Source: Neiella litorisoli (lineage in GTDB: Bacteria; Pseudomonadota; Gammaproteobacteria; Enterobacterales; Neiellaceae). From it: 64,000 nt of DNA. Shown one piece after another: positions 51,604 through 64,000 of this stretch. Numbering within the stretch: the first letter of the stretch is position 1; every line of letters begins with the position of its first letter. The translations under genes were made by a program, and so were the position numbers. A model generated the notes under the pieces. The model worked only from the letters and a program-made list of their open reading frames with translations, made no database searches and was not told the origin of the DNA. The stretch covers positions 1 through 64,000 of the forward strand of contig NZ_JACXAF010000008.1 of the NCBI RefSeq assembly GCF_014773395.1, in the 5' to 3' direction.

Positions 51604-51968
51604 GGGGCCGATTTTGGATTCGACGGGGATGATAAAGTCTTAGGTGCATGTCGTGGGGCGGTTGGCCACGTAAAAAGCCGCAAACTAATAGTCGCAAACG
51701 ACGAAAACTACGCTCTAGCAGCTTAATAACCTGCTAGCGCCTATCTGCCCTAGCTTCCGCTTGTAAGACGGGGAGTTCAGATAGTCAAACCCAAACAAGA
51801 TCGTGTGGACGCCGTGCCTGTCGGCTGAAGCATTAAAACTAATACAGGATAGTCTGTCCGTGGCGTGTCCGTCCGCAGCGTACCGGCGAATGTAATGACA
51901 GGACTAAACATGTAGGACCGAGGATGGCGCATTCACGGACGGGGGTTCAACTCCCCCCGGCTCCACCA
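51604..51968 (+). ncRNA. ssrA: transfer-messenger RNA
   Basis: The 365-nt RNA begins ggggccgattttggattcg and ends ggttcaactccccccggctc plus CACCA, with the tRNA-like acceptor and T-arm at its ends. The tag reading frame starts at GCA 51694 and encodes ANDENYALAA followed by two TAA stops, identical to the E. coli tag. A -10-like TACAAT lies about 30 nt upstream. The 3' end is the likely integration site of the adjacent island. Confidence 0.98.
51942..51968 (+). other. likely attachment site (attL) at the ssrA 3' end
   Basis: A P4-type integrase starts 179 nt past the ssrA 3' end and reads away from it, the usual layout of ssrA islands. The T-arm and acceptor bases of ssrA would be the att core. 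The matching direct repeat (attR) was not found within the window, so the island extends past the right edge. Confidence 0.55.
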
Positions 51969-51981
51969 CACAACAGAATCA

Positions 51982-52004
51982 AGACGTCTCAGGACGTCTT
52001 TTTT
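51982..52004 (+). terminator. intrinsic terminator of ssrA
   Basis: The stem agacgtc/gacgtct with loop tcag is followed by six Ts, 14 nt after the CCA end of tmRNA. Confidence 0.88.
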
Positions 52005-52037
52005 CTTGCCTAAATAAAATAAATATCAACAACTTAA

Positions 52038-52129: not shown

Positions 52130-52146
52130 CAAGATCCGGTGTCGTG

Positions 52147-53367
52147 ATGGCCAAATATAAACTCACAGATAAAGCGCTAAAATCTGCCAAACCTAACGAT
52201 AAAGATTATGTTCTGACAGACGGCGAAGGGCTGCAATTCCGAGTACGAACAAATGGTAGCCTACAGTGGAATTTTAACTACCGTCACCCATTCACTAAAA
52301 AACGCATTAACATGGGGTTAGGTACCTATCCAACCATATCGCTGAAAGCCGCTCGGGAAATGGCTGATGAAGCACGAACATTGGTAGCCAAAAGAATTGA
52401 TCCCAAGGAACACCGGGAAGAGCATCGACGCATGGTGCTCGAACAAACAGAACACACACTAGAGAAAGTTACCGATAATTGGCTTGCCACTCAGCAATCA
52501 ACAATAACAGCAGATCACATCAAGGATATTCGCCGCTCACTTGAGCTCCACATATTTGACGACTTGGGCGATGTACCTGTTACAAAACTTAAAGCCCCAA
52601 CAGTCATAACCACCCTAAAACGAGTTGAGCAACAGGGCAAATTAGAAACCGTTAAGCGACTGTGTCAACGCATCAACAAGGTAATGACATATGCAGTTAA
52701 TTGTGGACTCGTTGAAACCAATAATCTTGCCGGCATAAACGCCGCATTTATCAGTCCTACAAAAGAAAACCTCCCTGCTCTAGCACCGACAGAGCTACCT
52801 GAATTACTCAAAACAGCGTCCAACGCCAACATGCATAAAGTCACACGAGCTCTATTTGAGTGGCAACTTCACACCATGACAAGACCCGCAGAGGCGGCTG
52901 AGGCATCCTGGGCTGAGATCGACTTTGAAAAGCAACTATGGATTATTCCCAAAGAACGAATGAAAAACGGTAAAGAGCACATCATCCCGCTCACCGAGCA
53001 CGCTTTGGCCATACTCGAGGCAATCAAGCCAATTAGCGGGCACCGCCCATTTATATTTCCTTCAGATAGAGATCCTAAAAAACCCCGCAACTCTCAAACA
53101 ATCAACGCAGCCTTAAAGCGAATGGGCTTCAAAGGAAGAACCGTTGGTCACGGGCTCAGATCACTTGCTTCAACCACCCTCAACGAAGAAGAATTCGACT
53201 CCGATATCATTGAGGCCGCCCTATCACACACTGGCAAAGACGAAGTTCGCAATGCCTATAACCGGGCCAAGTATCTAAAGCGGCGTCGCAAGATGATGAA
53301 CTGGTGGAGTAAGCATATTGAGAAGGCTGCTAGTGGGTATATGCTTATAAGCAAAATATCCAATTGA
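52147..53367 (+). CDS. P4-family tyrosine integrase
   Basis: The 406-residue site-specific recombinase has the N-terminal P4-integrase arm-binding domain (KYKLTDKALKSAKPNDKDYVL, then TDGEGLQFRV). A core-binding domain follows, then the catalytic domain with TRPAEAAEASW (first Arg), HGLRSLASTTLNE (His-x-x-Arg), LSHTGKDEVRNAYNRAKYLKRR (His and nucleophile Tyr). It is full length. ATG 52147 is preceded by GTG 52144; ribosome sites are weak. It lies just beyond ssrA and reads into the island, so it most likely integrated the element at ssrA. Confidence 0.93.
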   Translation: MAKYKLTDKALKSAKPNDKDYVLTDGEGLQFRVRTNGSLQWNFNYRHPFTKKRINMGLGTYPTISLKAAREMADEARTLVAKRIDPKEHREEHRRMVLEQTEHTLEKVTDNWLATQQSTITADHIKDIRRSLELHIFDDLGDVPVTKLKAPTVITTLKRVEQQGKLETVKRLCQRINKVMTYAVNCGLVETNNLAGINAAFISPTKENLPALAPTELPELLKTASNANMHKVTRALFEWQLHTMTRPAEAAEASWAEIDFEKQLWIIPKERMKNGKEHIIPLTEHALAILEAIKPISGHRPFIFPSDRDPKKPRNSQTINAALKRMGFKGRTVGHGLRSLASTTLNEEEFDSDIIEAALSHTGKDEVRNAYNRAKYLKRRRKMMNWWSKHIEKAASGYMLISKISN

Positions 53368-53417: not shown

Positions 53418-54989
53418 TTACTTTAGACGCATTTCCAATTCAGAAGCAATCTGATCTATATCATCGTCAAATACCTTGAAGAGTTTATCTGCCAAAAGAG
53501 GTAATTCTTCGATAAGAGCGTTTTGATCGCCTACTATCAATGGAAGTAGTTTGGTCTGTTTTGAGTCTATTTCTGATGACAGTACTGCGTTCAACTCTTT
53601 CATAGGCCAAGCCTTATTGACTGAATGCTGTGAAATAATAGCTACAACATATTTTGATTTCTGAAGCGCAGTATTTATTTTCGCTACTAGCGAGTCCCCC
53701 CATTTTATCTCAAAACAATCAATAAAAGCTTTTATTCCTTTATCCTCTAAAGCTCGATGTAGAGGAATTGCGACATCATCTTTATCTTCACTCGCATGGC
53801 ACACAAATACATCATACATTTCAAAGCGTTCCTTAAGTTTTGCTATGGATTTTGGCGGGCTCGGTTCAAGCTCCAGTATTTTTTTACATAATGTTAAGTA
53901 AGAAGAGTTATCCTCTCCTCTTATCATTTTTATAAAGCTCAGGCGGCCGTAGATAGCATTTTTAAAATATCTACCGTCGAGTTTTTTGCTATCAATTTCT
54001 GATTCGCTCATATGGTAGCGAGTCATTAGGAACCTTCTCTCGGCTTCTACCAAATCTTTGCTCCAGCTATTGAGCATTGCTCTAGTATTTCTGATGAACT
54101 TTCGGCTTACATTTACCCCATCATTAACAACCAACCCTGTAACCTCTTGCCTTTGGGAACGATGCTGAACTCTCGTTTTCGAATCGTTTACAGTAAAGCC
54201 ACTTTCCTCAATTGATTGACGAAGAAGGCTGCCAACACGCCATTCAACTTTTCCTAGGTCAGTTTCAAAACGATCAACAATTGCCAACGGGAACTTTCTA
54301 TTGCTGGAGAAGGTAATATCATCGGCATACCGAGTGTAGGTAAGATGATACCTCTTTGCTATCTTAGTTAATGCCGTATCAAGGGAGCTAGCGGCAAGAT
54401 TTGAAAGAACGGGAGAAGTAGGAGCCCCCTGAGGTAATCTGCTATGGTTTGTGCATAACTGAGCAAGTACTGATGCTGCACTGTTGCCCATATTAAAAGG
54501 AACATTCATAAATATTCCTCTAACTCGACCAAAATGGACCGAGTGAAAAAAATCCTTTAAATCAATATTGAGTACATATTGTTTTTTCTTGTGTTTCTCT
54601 GCGTTACTAACAATCCCCTTTCCATTGCCAACAAATCCATGACATGATTTTTTTACTCTGTAATGATATTCGATCAGCGGCTTTACTTTGTGCTGCAGAA
54701 TTTTTAACGATTTATTGGGAGACTCAATTACTCTAAGCTGCCCTGATTTTTTTTTAATGTAAAACTCGTGATAGCGCTTCTTTTCTTCATAAAGAATATG
54801 AAGTAACTGACCAACAGGAATTTCCAGCAGATTTGCAAGCTCGTTGTCAGTTTGTATACCAATCAATCTTTGAGCTACAGCATCCCTTTCTCTTTTTAGG
54901 GTGGGGGATAGCCGAGGATTCGACCAACTGGCTTCAATCCGTTTCGGCTCAAACTCACTTATATCGAGGAACTCTAAGGTTAACTGCAT
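53418..54989 (-). CDS. retron reverse transcriptase fused to a TIR domain
   Basis: The product is 523 residues. The N-terminal part (to about 90) is a short helical domain. The reverse transcriptase (about 90-300) has the retron hallmarks: NAEKH (129-133, the NAxxH motif), NIDLKDFFHS with catalytic Asp143, LPQGAPTSPVLSNL (185-198), YADD (221-224) and VTG (283-285). After a linker, residues 391-523 form a TIR domain: YDVFVCHASEDKDDVAIPLH, KAFIDCFEIKWGDSL, YVVAIISQHSV and KAWPMKEL with likely catalytic Glu465. Known retron-TIR systems protect against phage, the TIR probably depleting NAD. The candidate msr-msd RNA lies 38 nt upstream. Base composition is AT-rich relative to neighbours. Confidence 0.93.
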   Translation of the reverse strand: MQLTLEFLDISEFEPKRIEASWSNPRLSPTLKRERDAVAQRLIGIQTDNELANLLEIPVGQLLHILYEEKKRYHEFYIKKKSGQLRVIESPNKSLKILQHKVKPLIEYHYRVKKSCHGFVGNGKGIVSNAEKHKKKQYVLNIDLKDFFHSVHFGRVRGIFMNVPFNMGNSAASVLAQLCTNHSRLPQGAPTSPVLSNLAASSLDTALTKIAKRYHLTYTRYADDITFSSNRKFPLAIVDRFETDLGKVEWRVGSLLRQSIEESGFTVNDSKTRVQHRSQRQEVTGLVVNDGVNVSRKFIRNTRAMLNSWSKDLVEAERRFLMTRYHMSESEIDSKKLDGRYFKNAIYGRLSFIKMIRGEDNSSYLTLCKKILELEPSPPKSIAKLKERFEMYDVFVCHASEDKDDVAIPLHRALEDKGIKAFIDCFEIKWGDSLVAKINTALQKSKYVVAIISQHSVNKAWPMKELNAVLSSEIDSKQTKLLPLIVGDQNALIEELPLLADKLFKVFDDDIDQIASELEMRLK

Positions 54990-55026
54990 TTAAAACAACA
55001 AGGCCTTCCATGGTCTAAGTAGGCGA

Positions 55027-55173
55027 GTTTCAACCCAATCACCCTGCGCACCTTGCGGCAAGCAACCCATCAATCACGACAGCCCCCTTGGGCTTATGCA
55101 GATTTAATGAGCATAATGTTCTCGGAATTCCTAGTCCAAAGCAGTAACAACTTCAGACATTTTGGGTTGAAAC
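55027..55173 (-). ncRNA. candidate retron msr-msd RNA
   Basis: On the minus strand, 38 nt upstream of the reverse transcriptase start, a 147-nt stretch is bounded by a perfect 12-bp inverted repeat. a1 is gtttcaacccaa read from 55173, and a2 is ttgggttgaaac ending at 55027. Inside are candidate stems: a palindromic ggaattcc in the 5' (msr) part, tatgc/gcata, gccc/gggc and cttg/caag in the 3' (msd) part. Size, position and the terminal a1/a2 pairing are as in known retrons. The priming G and msd ends cannot be fixed by eye. Confidence 0.78.
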
Positions 55174-55181
55174 CCATTGTG

Positions 55182-55209
55182 ACAATACACTAAAAACCTT
55201 CTATCACAA
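55182..55209 (-). promoter_or_regulatory. promoter of the retron
   Basis: On the minus strand the -35 TTGTGA (55204-55209) and the -10 TATTGT (55182-55187) are 16 nt apart. Transcription would start about at the first bases of a1. A perfect palindrome attgt-g-acaat (55176-55186) overlaps the -10 and could be an operator. Confidence 0.5.
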
Positions 55210-56491: not shown

Positions 56492-59400
56492 TTAAACAGC
56501 ACCAACACCCAAACGAGTGATTTGAATCGTGTCGCCAATGATTTCTTTCGCCTTGTCCATACCTACCGCCTTAAACAACACAGGCAACAATTGGCGTCGG
56601 ATGTGGTTTTCAATTTCCTGCGGATTAATCGAAAACTCAGCAACAGCAGCCGTCACAATGGTTTCGATTTGCTGGGCGTAAGCGAACATCTCATCTTCGG
56701 TTAGCGTATTGCCTTCACCTAATCTGTGCGGGAACAAGCCATAGTAGGCTTGTACATGACGCCTGATTTTCGGATCGAGTTCAGCAAAGCGATCGTTTGG
56801 CATGCCATCGACTTTGCGCTCTTTAACCTGCTCTTCAAAGTCGGCAAACAGCAAGTATTGCTTCACTGGCGCTTCGAACATTTCTTTGGCTTGCTCAATC
56901 GCCTGTTTCAGCAACTTGGAGAAGTATTCCTGGGCATAAGGGTCGTCCGCCAAGTCTTGGTCAATCATCTTGGTAATGCGGCCAGTAATCGCATCTTTTT
57001 TGTTGCGGGCTTCATCGTCAGACATTTCGCTGGGTGACGCGCTTTTGCCCATGTTACCAACGAGGTATGCACCGTCAGGCTCTTGGATGTTCACGCCACC
57101 AATGTGCTTATCGAGCATGGTTCGAATGCTCTCAGCATACTCATCGTAACTGACCGTCTCCTCGGCATCTTCACGTACTTGCTTGCGCAGCTCAGACATC
57201 GATTTGAGCGTCTTTTTGTAAAGGTCTCGCTTACCCAAGCCCGTTTTCGGATCGATGGCATCAAAGCTTTTATCTTCAAAGTATGTCGCCGATTGAAGCG
57301 CCACTTTGAGGCAGTTGGCAAATGCAGTGAGCGCCTCGTAAAAGTCTTCACGCTTTTTCAGGTTGGTATCGGTGAGTTGGCCATCAATAGTGTCAATCTT
57401 CGGAGCCAACACCTGCCGCAGCGCTTGACCGTCTTGTTTGTTCTGAACGCCGTCAAAAATTGCCCACAAGTCATCGTACAACCCCGGCAGTTTCTTGTAC
57501 TCGGTGTCCATGCGGTTGTACAAGCCTTTGAGATCGTCAATGTCAAGGCCTCCCTGCGTCCGCTCTGCCAGGTCTTGGTAATCTGCAATGGTGGCGTCCA
57601 GTTCTTTAAGGATACCGCGGTAGTCAATCAAGTAACCAAACTGTTTGGCTTCATGCAGACGGTTAACCCGCGCAATGGCCTGAATCAGGTTGTGTTGCTT
57701 TAGCGGCTTATCGATGTAAAGCACCGTATTCTTGGGCTCATCAAAACCGGTTAAGAGCTTGTCGACCACAATCATGATGTCTGGCCCATCAGGCTTTCCG
57801 AACTCAGCAATAATGTGCTGGGTATAGGCTTTTTCATCCTGACCAAAGTCCGAGTTAATGACGTTGGCTTTCCACCAGTTCTGAACAATGTCCTTGCTTT
57901 CGCCATCCACGGTATCGTGGCCTTCACGGGTATCCGGTGGCGACATCGCCACAACTGAGGTGACTTTGCCAATCTGATCGAGCAGCTTTTTATATTGAAT
58001 GGCCGACGCTTTGGAATCACAAGCCAGCTGGCCTTTAAGCCCTTGCCGTTTGAAGTTCTGGAAGTGGTCAGAAATATCGTGAGCGATGAGCTCTAGTCGG
58101 CCTTCGGTTTGGTAAATCTGGCCTTTTTGTCCGAATTTTTTCTTAAGGTCGGTGCGTTGCTTTTCTGAGAGCTTGTCGGTAATTCGGTCGAACCACGCAT
58201 CAATGGCTTTGTCATTGGTACTTAAATCGGGAATACGCTCTTCATACAACAAAGGCGTCACGGTCTTATCTTCCACCGCCTGTTGCATGGTGTAAGAGTG
58301 GATAATTTTGCCGAACTTGTTTTCGGTCTTGTCATCTTTGAGTAGCGGCGTACCGGTAAAGCCAATGTAGGCGGCACGTGGCAACGCCTGTTGCATGCGA
58401 ATGTTGTTCTCACCGTTTTGGCTACGGTGCCCTTCATCCACCAATACAATGATATCTGGGCTTTCGTTATAGCACTCAGGCAGCTCAATCGCGGTGCCAA
58501 ACTTATTGATGATCGAGAAGATGATGCGCTCATTGCCCTTGCCAATTTGCTCGGCCAAGCGGCGGCCTGTTGTGGCCATGGCGGACTTCTTATCTTTATC
58601 CGACAGTGCGCCACCAGAGGCAAAGGTACGAGCCAGCTGATCTTCTAAATCAACTCGGTCGGTTACCACCACCACGCGGCATTTCGCTAGCTCTTTGAGC
58701 CAAATAAGCGCCTTGGATAAGAACACCATGGTGAAAGATTTACCCGAGCCTGTGGTGTGCCAAATCACGCCGCCATTGCGTGCGCCTTTACGAGCGCCAC
58801 TCAAGCTATCGTCAAAAGTCGTGACGCGCTCAATCAGCGCCTTAATACCAAATACTTGCTGATAGCGGGCGACAATCTTGCCTGCTTTTTTATCGAACAA
58901 AGTGAATAATCGCGTCATTTCAAGCAAGCGATCGTGGCGAAGCAACGACACCAATAAGCGGTCTTGGTCGGTCACCACTAATTCGCCACCGCTTATTAGC
59001 GACAGATACTCATCACGAATCTTGGCGGGGCGATGATTGAAGATGGCATCCAGCTTATCTTGCGCCAATGGCGTGTTCTTAAGGCGGCTAAAGGTGGCAT
59101 CGGTAATTTGCTCTTCTTTCCACTTGGCCCAGAACTTACTTGGGGTACCACAGGTGCCGTATAAGCCGTCATGGCCATTGACCGACAGCAATAACTGGCT
59201 GTAGGCAAATAAGTGCGGGATTTCATCGGCTTTTTGATTGCGAATGTTTTGCGATATGCCTTCGCTGACCGTTGGTTTACCTTCGTGCGATGAATCAGGG
59301 CGCTTGGCCTCAATCACCACCCAAGGTAAGCCATTTACAAAACACACCACATCGGGAATGCGATGGCCGGTGCCGCGACTGTTTTCCACTTCCATCTCTT

Positions 59401-59809
59401 CGGTAAAGTGGAATTGGTTATTGCTTGCATTTTCCCAGTCGATGAGATGAATGGTGGGCGATGCCTTTTTGCCATCCACAAATTCAGTGACGCCAATACC
59501 GTAGGTCAGCGCGTTGTAGAGCTTTTCGTTGGCGGCTTTGAGGCCTTCGTTCATGGCTGGGTTCGCCAGCTCTTGCACAATTTTGTCAATGGCCGCTTCT
59601 GATAAGTGCTGCGCTTTTCCCATAAAGGAATAGGTTTTGGTGGCTAGCACCTTGCGCAAAATGTTAGGCAAAATCACCGAAGACTTATTGCCGCGCCAAG
59701 CTAAGCATTGCTCAGGCGGCACACAGGTGTAGCCAAGGTTGGTGAGCAACGTTAGCGCTGGGATTTTGGCCGCTTGCTCTTCATTGAAACAGGGGAGAGG
59801 TGAATCCAT
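56492..59809 (-). CDS. hsdR: type I restriction enzyme subunit R
   Basis: HsdR is the translocase and nuclease of type I restriction systems. The 1105-residue product has an N-terminal PD-(D/E)xK nuclease (HRIPDVVCFVNGLPWVVIEAKRP). Superfamily 2 helicase motifs follow: Walker A GVIWHTTGSGKSFTM, DEGH box LVDEGHRSQ, FTGTPLLKDD, VVDKLLTGFDEP and QAIARVNRLH. A long helical C-domain for HsdM contact completes it. ATG 59809 was chosen: it is 2 nt after the nucleotidyltransferase stop; a GTG at 59824 is an alternative with overlap. It is separated from hsdM/hsdS by three unrelated genes. Confidence 0.96.
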   Translation of the reverse strand: MDSPLPCFNEEQAAKIPALTLLTNLGYTCVPPEQCLAWRGNKSSVILPNILRKVLATKTYSFMGKAQHLSEAAIDKIVQELANPAMNEGLKAANEKLYNALTYGIGVTEFVDGKKASPTIHLIDWENASNNQFHFTEEMEVENSRGTGHRIPDVVCFVNGLPWVVIEAKRPDSSHEGKPTVSEGISQNIRNQKADEIPHLFAYSQLLLSVNGHDGLYGTCGTPSKFWAKWKEEQITDATFSRLKNTPLAQDKLDAIFNHRPAKIRDEYLSLISGGELVVTDQDRLLVSLLRHDRLLEMTRLFTLFDKKAGKIVARYQQVFGIKALIERVTTFDDSLSGARKGARNGGVIWHTTGSGKSFTMVFLSKALIWLKELAKCRVVVVTDRVDLEDQLARTFASGGALSDKDKKSAMATTGRRLAEQIGKGNERIIFSIINKFGTAIELPECYNESPDIIVLVDEGHRSQNGENNIRMQQALPRAAYIGFTGTPLLKDDKTENKFGKIIHSYTMQQAVEDKTVTPLLYEERIPDLSTNDKAIDAWFDRITDKLSEKQRTDLKKKFGQKGQIYQTEGRLELIAHDISDHFQNFKRQGLKGQLACDSKASAIQYKKLLDQIGKVTSVVAMSPPDTREGHDTVDGESKDIVQNWWKANVINSDFGQDEKAYTQHIIAEFGKPDGPDIMIVVDKLLTGFDEPKNTVLYIDKPLKQHNLIQAIARVNRLHEAKQFGYLIDYRGILKELDATIADYQDLAERTQGGLDIDDLKGLYNRMDTEYKKLPGLYDDLWAIFDGVQNKQDGQALRQVLAPKIDTIDGQLTDTNLKKREDFYEALTAFANCLKVALQSATYFEDKSFDAIDPKTGLGKRDLYKKTLKSMSELRKQVREDAEETVSYDEYAESIRTMLDKHIGGVNIQEPDGAYLVGNMGKSASPSEMSDDEARNKKDAITGRITKMIDQDLADDPYAQEYFSKLLKQAIEQAKEMFEAPVKQYLLFADFEEQVKERKVDGMPNDRFAELDPKIRRHVQAYYGLFPHRLGEGNTLTEDEMFAYAQQIETIVTAAVAEFSINPQEIENHIRRQLLPVLFKAVGMDKAKEIIGDTIQITRLGVGAV

Positions 59810-59811
59810 AC

Positions 59812-60642
59812 TTAAAGTCCCCACAATGCACCTTTGGCCGTAGTGACCTCTGGTAGCAGCTCTTTAATTTGTGACAGGGCCAAAGCTTCATAGCCATCTT
59901 GTGAATTTGATTTGGCTTGACGAACAATAGTTTTAGCCCGATCTAGAGCTGTTTTCTTGTATTGGGCAGCCCCCCACCCTAGGCTAAGTGACTCCACAGC
60001 ATCAAAGAAATAATCTTTGAGCTGAGCAGACGTTAAAAGGGAGACCCAAATGTATGAACGCTCTGCCAGTTCCTTCTCAAGCTCAAAAGAGTTGAACGGA
60101 TAGTTATTTATTGCATTCCAGTATTTTACAAGCCTAATCATGGGCTTTATTAGGCTGTTGTTTGATTGATTTGCGTTTGAAAGATCACGATTAATATCAT
60201 TGGGATCAGTATCAATCCAATCGTTTAAGTCAGCCCGCTTAGCTGGAATTTGCAGGCCATGAAACCAATCAGTAATCGCCGGCACTAACTCAAACTTTAT
60301 ATGATTCAATGTAAGAACGATTGTAGGGTTCGATTGAGTGATCTCGGAGCTAGAGTAGTAATACTCAACAAACCGACGGAGTTTATCGAGATAGGTTTGA
60401 GGTTTATAATTCGACCCCTCAAAGACGACCATGTAATCAATATCGGAGTTACCGTCCATTGCTCTAGGTAAGATTGTACCTCGAGTGTACGACCCAAAAA
60501 TAAAGTGCTTACTCAGCTCATTACCAAAGTAATACTCAAGCCTTTGTTGCAGTGTATGAATAGAGCGAGAGATGCTTTGTTTTTCCGCATTTCTTATTAC
60601 CGCCGCGTCAGCAAGCTCTCTCAGGTGGCTGTTTACAGTCAT
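59812..60642 (-). CDS. SMODS-type nucleotidyltransferase (CBASS-like)
   Basis: The 276-residue protein of the polymerase-beta nucleotidyltransferase fold has a helical N-terminus, then FIFGSYTRGT with Gly50-Ser51, and the catalytic pair Asp67/Asp69 in NSDIDYMVVF. The third acidic position is Glu118 in IKFELVPA, where most relatives have Asp. A C-terminal helical OAS1-like part (IRLVKYWNAINNYPFNSFELEKE) follows. This fits the SMODS group, which makes oligonucleotide signals in CBASS; the product here is unknown. It overlaps the SLATT gene by 4 nt (ATGA). Being AT-rich, it stands out from hsdR. Confidence 0.83.
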   Translation of the reverse strand: MTVNSHLRELADAAVIRNAEKQSISRSIHTLQQRLEYYFGNELSKHFIFGSYTRGTILPRAMDGNSDIDYMVVFEGSNYKPQTYLDKLRRFVEYYYSSSEITQSNPTIVLTLNHIKFELVPAITDWFHGLQIPAKRADLNDWIDTDPNDINRDLSNANQSNNSLIKPMIRLVKYWNAINNYPFNSFELEKELAERSYIWVSLLTSAQLKDYFFDAVESLSLGWGAAQYKKTALDRAKTIVRQAKSNSQDGYEALALSQIKELLPEVTTAKGALWGL

Positions 60643-61148
60643 TTAGATTTCCTATCCACTTGATACTTTGAACGGCCGGAGTCAATATCTTTCTTGGCTT
60701 TTTCATAGGCTTTACGAGGAATTGCAGGCATGGTTGTATTTAGTTCATCGCGTCGGCTAGCCAGCTTATGAAGGGCTTGCTTTCCCTCTTCAGCGCTCAA
60801 TGACTCTCCAAGCTCTACTCCTCTAAATACACGGGTCTCGTTTCTCAATGATTGATACAAATTTCCTGCATTTTTGTGCGAGTCGGCTTTTTCGCTAGGT
60901 TTCAAAAAAGTCATACAGGTGACCAAAGCAGTTGAAAAGAAAGCTGTTCCAGTGATCATCGCTTGCGCTCCGTCTGCGGCCGACGAACCTCCTGCAACAG
61001 CACCTAACAATGCCGCTGGTAGACCAAGCCACAAGTTAATGCCAGACCAAAATTCAGCTGCATTGTAATGCGATTTGAAAGAGTGCTCAGAGTCTTCCTC
61101 TATACGAACGCATTCCTTGGCTATCTTTTCTTTTAAGTCGCTATCCAT
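60639..61148 (-). CDS. SLATT-domain two-TM membrane effector
   Basis: The 169-residue protein has two hydrophobic helices, about 36-53 (GINLWLGLPAALLGAVAG) and 62-82 (QAMITGTAFFSTALVTCMTF). An N-terminal helix (SFKSHYNAAEFW) precedes them. A C-terminal charged helical part (HKNAGNLYQSLRNETRVF; LHKLASRRDELN) matches the SLATT pattern (SMODS- and SLOG-associating two-TM effector). Such proteins are predicted to open pores or disrupt the membrane on a nucleotide signal. The ATG at 61148 follows AGGAC; a frame open to 61223 overlaps the DUF2188 gene. It overlaps the nucleotidyltransferase by 4 nt. Confidence 0.83.
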   Translation of the reverse strand: MDSDLKEKIAKECVRIEEDSEHSFKSHYNAAEFWSGINLWLGLPAALLGAVAGGSSAADGAQAMITGTAFFSTALVTCMTFLKPSEKADSHKNAGNLYQSLRNETRVFRGVELGESLSAEEGKQALHKLASRRDELNTTMPAIPRKAYEKAKKDIDSGRSKYQVDRKSK

Positions 61149-61158
61149 TGAACTTGTC

Positions 61159-61392
61159 CTACTTTTTGTCTTTTGGAGGATAAGGGTCATTGCCGTAACT
61201 GTTGCCAGCTCTGATCTTTCCATCTACTCCGTGTACTTTTGTATCTGTTTGCTGGTTTCTAGCAATTTGCTCTGCAACTTCAATTGCTTCTTTTTGAGTG
61301 CGAGTTACCTTGGTTGCTTTGCTGTTTCCTGCCCCTTTTACTGCCCAACCTTCGGGGTGTTTTACAACGTGCTGATTTTTTCCTTTTGTCAT
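61159..61392 (-). CDS. DUF2188 family protein
   Basis: The 77-residue protein of the DUF2188 family has HVVKHPEGWAVKGAGNSKATKV, TQKEAIEVAEQIARNQ, and the C-terminal HGVDGKIRAGNSYGNDPYPP. It is a small alpha-beta domain of unknown function, frequent near defence and mobile genes. Its ATG overlaps the hsdS stop (ATGA), and the SLATT gene begins 10 nt after its stop. It may be an accessory to the SLATT/nucleotidyltransferase pair or a cargo gene. Confidence 0.85.
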   Translation of the reverse strand: MTKGKNQHVVKHPEGWAVKGAGNSKATKVTRTQKEAIEVAEQIARNQQTDTKVHGVDGKIRAGNSYGNDPYPPKDKK

Positions 61393-62618
61393 GACGAGAT
61401 CTCCATTTCATCAATTGTAACCCTGCGCTTGCCCGTGAGTAGTTGCTGCATTAGGGCTTTTTTCTCTTGTTTGAGGTGGGCGAGTTTGGCTTGCTGCACT
61501 TCGATTTCTTTATCAGCGGCGGTTAGGACGGCGGCGATTTTTTGTTGTTCGTCTAACCTAGGAAGCTTGATTTTTATTCCTTTTATGATGGCCGCATTTA
61601 AATTCGGTTGACCACCTTGAACTAAAGTCAGCGCTTTCTCCATTTCCTTCTCTAGCAAATAAAAAAGGAATAGATTTGAATGCGCTTCTTTTACTTCAAG
61701 TGCTAGCACGGCCTGATTAATCGTCGCAGATTGCATTCTATTGATAGCGACTTTTCCCGCAGTAGCGCCATACATTGCGATTAATAAAGCACCTTGCGCA
61801 ACATATTTAGCAGATGAGTTGGATACACCACTTTCAGTAATGTATTCATTAACTGACTCCACAAAACGATCATTTAGTTTGCCTGATGTAATCCATGGGA
61901 TAGTTCCACCATAGTATTCATCATTTGTTCTAGACGGTGTGCCACCAGAGAAGCACTTAGCCGTAGTTGAAACCAATGTATTCTCCCACTCCCCCTCAAA
62001 CGGTTGGCCGGTTTCGGGGCTGGTGAGGCGTTTTTTGCCGGAGAGGAGTTGCTGCATCAGGGCTTTTTTCTGCTGCTGGCTGGCGGCAATGAGCTTTTCG
62101 GTGGTGGCGATGGCCTTATCCCAAGTGGCAAGGATTTTGGCGATCTTGCGTTGTTCAGGGAGGGGGGGGAGTGGCAACTTTACTTTTCGAAGCTCCTCTA
62201 AAGAAATCTCCTTGAACGTTGAGCCTTTACTCAGAGCATTAATGCGGTTCAAAATTGGTGAGCTGGCCAGTTTGTAGTATACGAACTTCGTATCATTGAG
62301 TGCGTTTACGGAAATTCTAGCTGTTCCCTGAGTCAAATTAGCTTCGGCTAGCTCAGCCGGAACGATACTAGTTCTCGCGATATTACCCCGCAACGAAAAC
62401 ACAATATCATCTGGGTGGACTGCCGAACGCCTGTATTTTTGATGGATCTCTACAGCTGTCTTTTGAAGACGATTTACATCTATATCACCTCCAACATCAG
62501 AGCTTTTGATATAAGGCACCCCATCATCTACATGAGGTCCAGCTTGTACGATCCCGTAAGAAATTTTTTCTTTGGTGATCTCTTGCAATGTTTCTTCTTT
62601 CCATCCTTCAGGCACCAT
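61389..62618 (-). CDS. hsdS: type I restriction enzyme specificity subunit
   Basis: HsdS sets the DNA sequence recognised by methylation and restriction. The 409-residue product has two target-recognition domains (about 1-150 and 200-345), each followed by a conserved helical region. The first is PLPPLPEQRKIAKILATWDK, then KKALMQQLLSGKKRL. The second is LPRLDEQQKIAAVLTAADKE, then KKALMQQLLTGKRRV. The two spacer regions are near-repeats, as in bipartite HsdS. It overlaps hsdM by 11 nt and DUF2188 by 4 nt. The second recognition domain is more AT-rich, a sign of domain exchange. Confidence 0.95.
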   Translation of the reverse strand: MVPEGWKEETLQEITKEKISYGIVQAGPHVDDGVPYIKSSDVGGDIDVNRLQKTAVEIHQKYRRSAVHPDDIVFSLRGNIARTSIVPAELAEANLTQGTARISVNALNDTKFVYYKLASSPILNRINALSKGSTFKEISLEELRKVKLPLPPLPEQRKIAKILATWDKAIATTEKLIAASQQQKKALMQQLLSGKKRLTSPETGQPFEGEWENTLVSTTAKCFSGGTPSRTNDEYYGGTIPWITSGKLNDRFVESVNEYITESGVSNSSAKYVAQGALLIAMYGATAGKVAINRMQSATINQAVLALEVKEAHSNLFLFYLLEKEMEKALTLVQGGQPNLNAAIIKGIKIKLPRLDEQQKIAAVLTAADKEIEVQQAKLAHLKQEKKALMQQLLTGKRRVTIDEMEISS

Positions 62619-64000
62619 AACCCAACTCCTTCAGATAACCCGCCATTTCGGTTTCCAGCTCAGCCAGTTCAGTTTGCAGCGCTAGGCGTTCGGCGCGCAC
62701 GGCAACCAAGTCGATTTCTTCCTCTTCTTCAAAGGTATCGACGTAGCGTGGGATGTTCAGGTTGTAGTCGTTTTCTTGAATCTCTTTGAGTGAGGCAAGG
62801 TATGCGTATTTATCAACGCTTTGCCCATTGCGGTAGGTTTCAACAATCTTGTTGATGTTGTCGGTGGTCAGCAAGTTTTGGTTCTTGCCGGACTTAAACT
62901 CGCGACTGGCATCGATGAACAAGACGTCGCTGTCGTCTTTGTGCTTTTTGAAAATCAAAATCGCCGCGGGGATGCCGGTGCCAAAGAATAGCTTTTCTGG
63001 CAAGCCGATCACTGCATCGAGCAGGTTTTCATCAATCAGTTGTTTGCGGATTTTGCCTTCGCTGGATGCGCGGAATAGCACGCCGTGGGGCACTACCACG
63101 CCCATTCTCCCTGATTGAGGTTTTAAGGTTTCAATCATGTGGGAGATAAACGCATAGTCGCCTTTGGTCTTAGGTGGAATGCCTCGGCGGAAACGACCAA
63201 AGTGATCGTTGCTGGCATCTTCATGGCCCCACTTATCGAGAGAGAATGGCGGGTTGGCGGTGACCACATCAAAGTGCAGTAGGCCGCCGTCTTGATCCTG
63301 AAGTTTGGGATTACGAATGGTGTCGCCCCACTCAATGCGGTGGTTGTCTTCGCCGTGCAGGAACATGTTCATTTTGGCCAATGACCAAGTGGAGCCAATG
63401 GCTTCTTGGCCATACAGCGCATACTTCTTAGAGCCGCCAAAGTTCTTTTGAATTTGCTGGCCACACTTCATCAACAATGAGCCCGAGCCACAGGCCGGAT
63501 CGCAGATGCTGTCGCCTTCTTGTGGTGCCAACAGAATGGAGAGCAAGTCGGACACTTCGGGCGGGGTATAGAACTCACCGGCCGATTTGCCGCTGCCAGC
63601 GGCAAAGTGCTTGATGAGGTATTCGTAGGCGTTACCAATTACGTCGAGCGAGCCAACGCGGCTTGGGCGCAGATTCAGGGTGTCTTTACCAAAGTCTTCT
63701 AGCAGGTGACGCAGAATGTCGTTCTTTTGCTTTTCATCACCGAGCTTGTCGGTGTTAAAGCTGATGTCTTGGAACACGTTTTTCAGCTTGGTGCCGTTGG
63801 CTTCTTCAATGGCATGCAAGGCTTGGTCAATGCGTGAGCCATTACCCGCCTCATGGCGCGCTTCATACAAATCCCAAAAGGTGTTGCCGGCTGGGATTTT
63901 AAATGACTGGCTTTCCATCATTTCATTGATTAGCTCTGGCACATCACCGTATTCGGCTTTGAGTTCATCGTATTTGTCTTGGTGCACATCGGAGATGTAC
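62608..64000 (-). CDS. hsdM: type I restriction enzyme methylase subunit (5' end outside window)
   Basis: HsdM is the N6-adenine methyltransferase of the complex. At least 464 residues are visible and the frame runs through the right edge without a start, so the N-terminus is missing. The SAM motif is SICDPACGSGSLLMK, the catalytic motif is VTANPPFSL (N-P-P-F), and FYTPPEVSDLLS is also present. The C-terminus has a coiled coil (EEEEEIDLVAVRAERLALQTELAELE) that contacts HsdS. It is the first visible gene of the operon on the minus strand. Confidence 0.95.
   Translation of the reverse strand, partial: YISDVHQDKYDELKAEYGDVPELINEMMESQSFKIPAGNTFWDLYEARHEAGNGSRIDQALHAIEEANGTKLKNVFQDISFNTDKLGDEKQKNDILRHLLEDFGKDTLNLRPSRVGSLDVIGNAYEYLIKHFAAGSGKSAGEFYTPPEVSDLLSILLAPQEGDSICDPACGSGSLLMKCGQQIQKNFGGSKKYALYGQEAIGSTWSLAKMNMFLHGEDNHRIEWGDTIRNPKLQDQDGGLLHFDVVTANPPFSLDKWGHEDASNDHFGRFRRGIPPKTKGDYAFISHMIETLKPQSGRMGVVVPHGVLFRASSEGKIRKQLIDENLLDAVIGLPEKLFFGTGIPAAILIFKKHKDDSDVLFIDASREFKSGKNQNLLTTDNINKIVETYRNGQSVDKYAYLASLKEIQENDYNLNIPRYVDTFEEEEEIDLVAVRAERLALQTELAELETEMAGYLKELGYGA

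What the first reader, a model, noticed from the sequence alone, without database searches (positions are those of the whole stretch)
53418..55209. Complete retron-TIR unit with readable msr-msd boundaries and promoter
The reverse transcriptase has NAxxH, YADD and VTG retron motifs and a fused C-terminal TIR domain. Upstream there is a 147-nt stretch bounded by a perfect 12-bp a1/a2 repeat, 38 nt from the gene, with a TTGTGA-16-TATTGT promoter ending at a1. RT-TIR retrons have been shown to defend against phage, but few have defined RNA. This gives a specific ncRNA proposal.
Basis: partly seen in the sequence, partly recalled or inferred. Interest (0 to 1): 0.78.

Follow-up and report, generated by a model that had tools for sequence, protein, structure and literature searches.

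The report
Retron-TIR with a real template RNA
This is an intact bacterial anti-phage retron (a reverse transcriptase fused to a TIR domain) whose predicted template RNA is supported by comparison with relatives, and in which the usual starting base G for DNA synthesis appears to be replaced by A.

Summary
Window 53418-54989 (-) is an intact 523-aa RT-TIR that passes the curated cut-off of NCBIfam NF042941 (640.6 against 600 bits) and is best in PADLOC as RT-TIR_XII. Upstream, an exact 12-bp a1/a2 pair bounds 147 nt; 0 of 100 dinucleotide shuffles gave as long a repeat. A covariance model built from four close relatives found the same RNA upstream of 8 of 8 further E. coli/viral RT-TIR loci whose upstream DNA was held (E <= 1.5e-6), but of 0 of 9 more distant RT-TIR loci. 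In 295 genomes of the order it matched three, each an RT-TIR carrier. In 11 aligned RNAs, 17 of 23 pairs change on both sides (0 of 500 shuffles). Rfam 15 has no match.

Two claims weaken. The promoter is only partly supported. The msr-msd boundaries are not fully readable: the msd hairpin is mostly not significant, and where 16 of 16 other retron RNAs carry the priming G, 10 of 10 RT-TIR RNAs carry A. The system is a member of a known kind; the priming site is the open oddity. Mestre 2020 and Khan 2024 are not held, so prior publication of this RNA is unchecked.

The parts
53418..54989 (-). RT-TIR gene, 523 aa
54132..54758 (-). Reverse transcriptase domain (Pfam RVT_1, aa 78-286)
   Evidence: best solved match is Retron Ec67, 9i2f, E 2.5e-53
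54318..54329 (-). YADD active-site motif (aa 221-224)
   Evidence: Y221, A222, D223, D224 invariant in the 16 aligned proteins
53520..53810 (-). TIR domain (Pfam TIR_2, aa 394-490)
53595..53597 (-). E465, the glutamate of the WxxxEL motif; that it is the NADase catalytic Glu is recalled
   Evidence: aligned with 4lqc and 7uwg
55025..55175 (-). Retron ncRNA (msr-msd) as matched by models R1 and R2
   Evidence: The window RNA is one of the four used to build R1
55162..55173 (-). a1 arm, 12 bp exact
55027..55038 (-). a2 arm, 12 bp exact
55160..55162 (-). AAA at the place where Toprim-type retron RNAs carry the priming G (model columns 14-16); candidate priming nucleotides
   Evidence: function inferred
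55134..55158 (-). msr stem-loop (9 pairs)
   Evidence: 7 of 9 pairs with double changes
55039..55124 (-). Approximate msd template; both ends are estimates by analogy with Eco2
   Evidence: Inference; hairpin not significant
55182..55187 (-). -10-like box TATTGT
   Evidence: box shared by window, L037, L043; not listed by the scan
55204..55209 (-). -35-like TTGTGA, weak
   Evidence: not shared by relatives, not listed

Best explanation
A type XII (RT-TIR) retron. One transcript starting near 55175 carries a roughly 150-nt RNA (a1, one msr stem-loop, msd template, a2) followed by the RT-TIR gene. The RT binds the a1/a2 helix and the stem-loop, copies the msd part into single-stranded DNA held with the RNA, and this complex keeps the fused TIR domain in check. 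When a phage disturbs the complex the TIR becomes active and, most likely, breaks down NAD+, stopping the infected cell. Shown here by comparison: the gene, its family, and an RNA with a conserved helix and stem-loop tied to the gene. Taken from the family: phage defence. Inferred: the msDNA product, NADase activity, the resting state and the trigger.
For: NF042941 640.6 bits over cut-off 600; RT-TIR_XII 1.6e-191. R1, built from 4 RNAs, finds the RNA upstream of 8 of 8 further E. coli/viral RT-TIR loci with held upstream DNA and in 3 of 295 genomes of the order, each a carrier of RT-TIR at 64% identity or more, the window's own included. 17 of 23 pairs with changes on both sides, 0 of 500 shuffles on all five measures; slid structures pair only 32-52% of cells. 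RNA-only BLAST: 96 of 5,426 E. coli genomes, no annotated feature under the 30 records listed of 97. TIR aligned to bacterial TIR chains, E465 kept.
Against: R1 finds none of nine more distant RT-TIR loci; with filters off only L048, at E 0.3, of the seven of them retried. The pair-count alignment was fitted to the structure. The msd hairpin is mostly not significant. No canonical priming G. No expression, msDNA or defence data.
Confidence: 0.9

Rival explanations
1. The RNA is used by the RT-TIR, but DNA synthesis does not start from a branch nucleotide at the a1 end: it self-primes from a 3'-OH, as reported for Retron-Sen1 (Se72), or starts elsewhere, so no 2'-5' branched msDNA is made.
For: No G at the priming column in 10 of 10 aligned RT-TIR RNAs. 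Se72 lacks an apparent priming guanosine and a 2'-5' linkage was not seen there (PMC6868368, passages).
Against: The a1/a2 helix, which sets up 2'-5' priming in ordinary retrons, is strongly kept, and AAAU next to it is invariant in the 10 RNAs.
Confidence: 0.2
2. The upstream RNA is not a reverse-transcription template but a structured leader or regulator of the RT-TIR mRNA.
For: It lies 37 nt before the ATG; msd part without significant folding.
Against: Same order of parts as the solved Eco2 RNA (PMC12405507, passages); an RT with intact YADD; RNAs found by model R2 lie just upstream of other retron RTs.
Confidence: 0.05
3. The copy is decayed and does nothing now.
For: Relatives are often broken: L036 by an insertion with a transposase-like ORF, L037 by a frame change, some E. 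coli copies by IS elements.
Against: Intact 523-aa frame and motifs; paired a1/a2 helix and stem-loop.
Confidence: 0.06

Closest known systems
Retron-TIR / retron type XII (NCBIfam NF042941; PADLOC RT-TIR_XII)
   Same: RT and TIR in one protein, over the curated NCBIfam cut-off; an E. coli relative is annotated 'TIR domain-containing anti-phage reverse transcriptase'
   Different: Nothing in the protein; the window copy sits in an ssrA island, the E. coli copies in prophage- or satellite-like surroundings
Retron-Eco2 (Ec67), RT-Toprim
   Same: Order of RNA parts a1, one msr stem-loop, msd, a2 (PMC12405507, passages); closest solved RT (9i2f)
   Different: TIR instead of Toprim; A where Eco2-type RNAs have the priming G. 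R1 finds none of 16 Ec67-type sources, so common descent of the two RNAs rests on L080 and the shared plan
Retron-Sen1 (Se72)
   Same: Said to lack an apparent priming guanosine (PMC6868368, passage)
   Different: On a plasmid, with a cold-shock-protein-like ORF and a double-stranded DNA product by the same review; not compared by sequence here

Membership tests
Retron type XII (RT-TIR) | Retron RT fused to a C-terminal TIR domain, over the curated family cut-off | tested here: met
Retron | RT with YADD, NAxxH and VTG motifs | tested here: met
Retron | msr-msd RNA upstream of the RT, bounded by complementary a1/a2 | tested here: met
Retron | Priming guanosine at the internal end of a1 (in TAGC, CAGA, CAGC, GAGC or ACGC; PMC6868368) | tested here: not met
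   AAA at 55162-55160; 10 of 10 RT-TIR RNAs have A at the column where 16 of 16 others have G. The review names Se72 as a retron that also lacks it
Retron | Branched msDNA (2'-5' linked RNA-DNA) is made | not testable with these tools
   Needs an experiment
Eco2-like msr-msd RNA | Homology of the RNA to Ec67-type RNAs | tested here: inconclusive
   L080 found by R1 at 4.4e-4; 0 of 16 other sources at E <= 5; R2, which includes L080, finds others but not L215/L216
TIR NAD+ hydrolase | TIR fold family with the WxxxEL glutamate | tested here: met
   W461 and E465 aligned with 4lqc and 7uwg; catalytic role recalled, activity not tested

The most novel reading that the evidence does not exclude
In the gammaproteobacterial RT-TIR clade the retron RT starts DNA synthesis from the 2'-OH of an adenosine (one of A55160-A55162 here), or by another route, because the priming guanosine has been replaced by A in every RNA of the clade that I aligned (10 of 10). 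That would be a retron clade with a non-G branch nucleotide.
Probability: 0.4. Interest if true: 0.62.

Novelty: new member of a known kind. Interest (0 to 1): 0.45.

Why it matters
NCBIfam and PADLOC name retron-TIR from the protein, and I found no Rfam 15 match to its RNA. A covarying RNA of about 150 nt gives an exact template for isolating the msDNA and for finding intact copies. The G-to-A change at the priming site makes a specific question (is a guanosine needed for 2'-5' priming?) testable in a natural system that also occurs in E. coli (96 of 5,426 genomes).

Tried and rejected
A protein scan of genome contigs with the window protein alone found nothing; the scan with alignment A1 worked, keeping the best 80 of 575, so the relatives are a capped sample. 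My first list of 'TIR members' by query coverage wrongly held L051 (best PADLOC match RT-Toprim_I-C) and L075 (RT-Protease_XI); searches corrected this. The tree still labels both as TIR, so it does not show that TIR fusions form one clade; from it I use only the clade of window, L043, L128, L040, L129, L039, L126, L127 (98/94). MAFFT misplaced the stem-loop between the two RNA groups (A2) and RNAalifold on it gave an inner helix I do not trust; I used R1's alignment instead, which is fitted to the structure. The exact-repeat test was beaten by no shuffle in 10 of 20 loci (one of them L075) and not significant in the other 10, among them L043, L040 and seven of the nine distant RT-TIR loci; G-U pairs are not counted there, and for L047 and L065 the start codon I assumed cut off a2. 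The msd hairpin test was mostly negative. The window RNA has no match in plasmids and the marine-type stem-loop pattern none in viral contigs. No structure was predicted: sequence matches to solved RT and TIR chains were clear.

Full report
OBSERVATION. The reverse strand of 53418-54989 encodes an intact 523-aa protein. It matches Pfam RVT_1 (aa 78-286) and TIR_2 (aa 394-490), PADLOC RT-TIR_XII at 1.6e-191, and the NCBIfam equivalog NF042941 'TIR domain-containing anti-phage reverse transcriptase' at 640.6 bits, cut-off 600. The 12-bp repeat is exact: a1 55173-55162, a2 55038-55027, span 147 nt. In 100 dinucleotide shuffles of the 260 nt upstream, the best repeat of that kind had mean 6.41 and maximum 10 bp. 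Folding is moderately better than shuffles (z -2.53, 0 of 200 as low; z -2.60, 5 of 200 as low).

RELATIVES. A search of 394 genomes of the order gave, besides the window's own, two with RT-TIR at 64-65% identity: G399, whose gene is split by about 1.2 kb with a transposase-like ORF (my reading; family not tested), and G611, with a frame change. The named collections added Pseudoalteromonas sp. FUC4 (L043, 65%, intact), E. coli loci L039, L040 and L041 and viral contigs L123-L129. More distant RT-TIR loci are L044-L048, L050, L065, L098 and L130 (for L044, L046 and L050 the filing is by the alignment or by likeness to the tested L045 and L048).

THE RNA. R1 was built from four RNAs only (window, L036, L037, L043). 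Over 63 sources (668 kb) it returned 15 matches at E <= 1: the four training RNAs; eight upstream of RT-TIR genes (L127, L126, L128, L039, L129, L040, L041, L123; E 3.9e-11 to 1.5e-6; the last three read the same); L080 (4.4e-4); the reverse strand of L036 (0.029); and L051 (0.10). Not matched: L124, L125 and L169, whose contigs end inside or before the place; L042, whose gene start is lost beside an IS5; and nine distant RT-TIR loci (L044-L048, L050, L065, L098, L130). With filters off on seven of these nine plus L051 and L075, only L048 (E 0.3) and L051 (E 0.018) are matched at the right place. In 295 genomes drawn from the order, R1 matched three, the window's own, G399 and G611, the same three in which one search found RT-TIR at 64% identity or more (stricter filters that can lose weak matches). 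A BLAST of the E. coli RNA with short flanks found it in 96 of 5,426 E. coli genomes; the 30 records listed of 97 have no annotated feature there.

COVARIATION. On the 11-row alignment A6 (10 RT-TIR RNAs and L080): 95.1% of cells paired, 17 of 23 pairs with a change on both sides, 54 double-change cells against a shuffled mean of 17.3, 0 of 500 shuffles as high on any of the five measures; structures slid by 1-3 columns pair 32-52% of cells. The a1/a2 helix (10 of 14 pairs) and the msr stem-loop (7 of 9) both carry the signal. The alignment was fitted to the structure and the sequences are related, which both help. In the nine distant RT-TIR loci I could also point to complementary arms with different letters close to the gene (L098 by reading), but some were picked by eye, and in the exact-repeat test only L048 and L050 of these nine were beaten by no shuffle.

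ARCHITECTURE AND PRIMING SITE. PMC12405507 (passages) describes Eco2 as IRa1, branched rG15, rA16-rU19, one stem-loop, a single-stranded stretch, the msd and IRa2. The RT-TIR RNAs show the same order of a1, stem-loop and a2. R2 (built from A6, so with L080) gave 31 matches at E <= 1 in 183 sources, training RNAs included. For the 16 matched loci that are not RT-TIR and not near-copies I looked at the gene: the first long frame starts -14 to +25 nt from the RNA end, and 15 of 16 have a tail with an EGxTD motif that I recall as Toprim (not run against a library); the frame of L117 is short. At model column 14 these 16 RNAs have G and the 10 RT-TIR RNAs have A; columns 14-17 read AAAT in 10 of 10. 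L209 and the partial L212 also read AAAT, though the contig of L209 holds only the RT part and I saw no gene on that of L212. The review PMC6868368 (passages) places the priming G in TAGC, CAGA (Eco2), CAGC, GAGC or ACGC, and says Se72 lacks an apparent one. A G does occur further on (AAAUG in the window, AAAUUUG in L039), but at varying distance, and L129 has none before its stem-loop. Elsewhere the site varies: L048, L050 and L130 (RT-TIR) read UAG after a1; L047 (RT-TIR) and L051 (RT-Toprim) have no G there. So the clean contrast belongs to one clade, not to all TIR retrons, and a missing G is not limited to it.

CAUTION ON THE ECO2 LINK. R1 finds none of 16 Toprim- or Ec67-type sources at E <= 5, and R2 does not find L215 or L216, E. 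coli Ec67-type loci, at E <= 1. Common descent of the two RNA groups rests on L080 and on the shared plan. By eye L215 reads GGTAGATTTGTTGGTTGT where L039 reads CCTTAAATTTGTGAGGTTGT.

WHAT IT DOES. The TIR domain matches bacterial TIR chains, among them one named NAD(+) hydrolase (8g83), with W461 and E465 on the WxxxEL motif in the alignments shown. That Retron-TIR is an antiviral system comes from a commentary on Gao et al. (PMC7699616, passage). NAD+ breakdown as the way of stopping the cell, and activation when a phage disturbs the complex, are inferred from other retrons (PMC12948488, passages) and from TIR enzymes in general.

PROMOTER AND MSD. A GTGTATTRT box lies 5-6 nt before the RNA in window, L037 and L043, not in L036; the -35 is not shared, and the scan did not list the pair. 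The stretch between stem-loop and a2 folds better than shuffles at the 5% level in 1 of 10 RNAs (L040; z from -1.93 to +0.89). The msd ends given here are estimates.

LITERATURE. Ten library searches: no paper held retron, TIR and 'type XII' together, and no title or abstract start in the listings describes an RT-TIR RNA. I saw passages only of PMC7699616, PMC12405507, PMC6868368, PMC13405049, PMC12956279, PMC12548924, PMC8867640 and PMC12948488. Mestre 2020 and Khan 2024 are not held; Gao 2020 and Millman 2020 were not looked up. Absence from print is therefore not claimed.

VERDICT. A well-supported member of a known kind, with its RNA defined and tested here for one clade, and one open oddity at the priming site.

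Noticed in passing
window 51954-52020 and contig C45 96143-96209: A 40-bp exact repeat of the ssrA (tmRNA) 3' end and what follows, then one mismatch and 26 more identical bases, 44.2 kb apart, with an integrase gene just inside at 52144-53367: a likely ssrA-integrated island, with the retron as first cargo next to the integrase.
   Followed up: partly
window 56492-64000 (the last gene runs to 64125 of the contig): HsdR, then an SMODS cyclase (59812-60642) and a 2TM/SLATT effector (60639-61223), then HsdS and an HsdM-like gene (by eye): a small CBASS-like pair lies inside a type I restriction operon.
   Followed up: no
contig C45 74268-94278 (L217, L218), outside the window, same putative island: An RT-Cas1 fusion (88414-90504) with Cas10-Cmr2 palm, RAMP and Cas_NE0113 proteins and a Card1-like nuclease: a type III CRISPR locus with its own reverse transcriptase beside the retron.
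   Followed up: partly
L036 5096-6226; L037 near 5875; E. coli hits H92, H93, H119: RT-TIR copies are often broken: by an insertion, by a frame change, or by ISSen4 or IS1A.
   Followed up: no
L051 4802-4942: The RNA upstream of a Herpetosiphon RT-Toprim also shows no G between a1 and the stem-loop, so a missing priming G may not be limited to RT-TIR.
   Followed up: no
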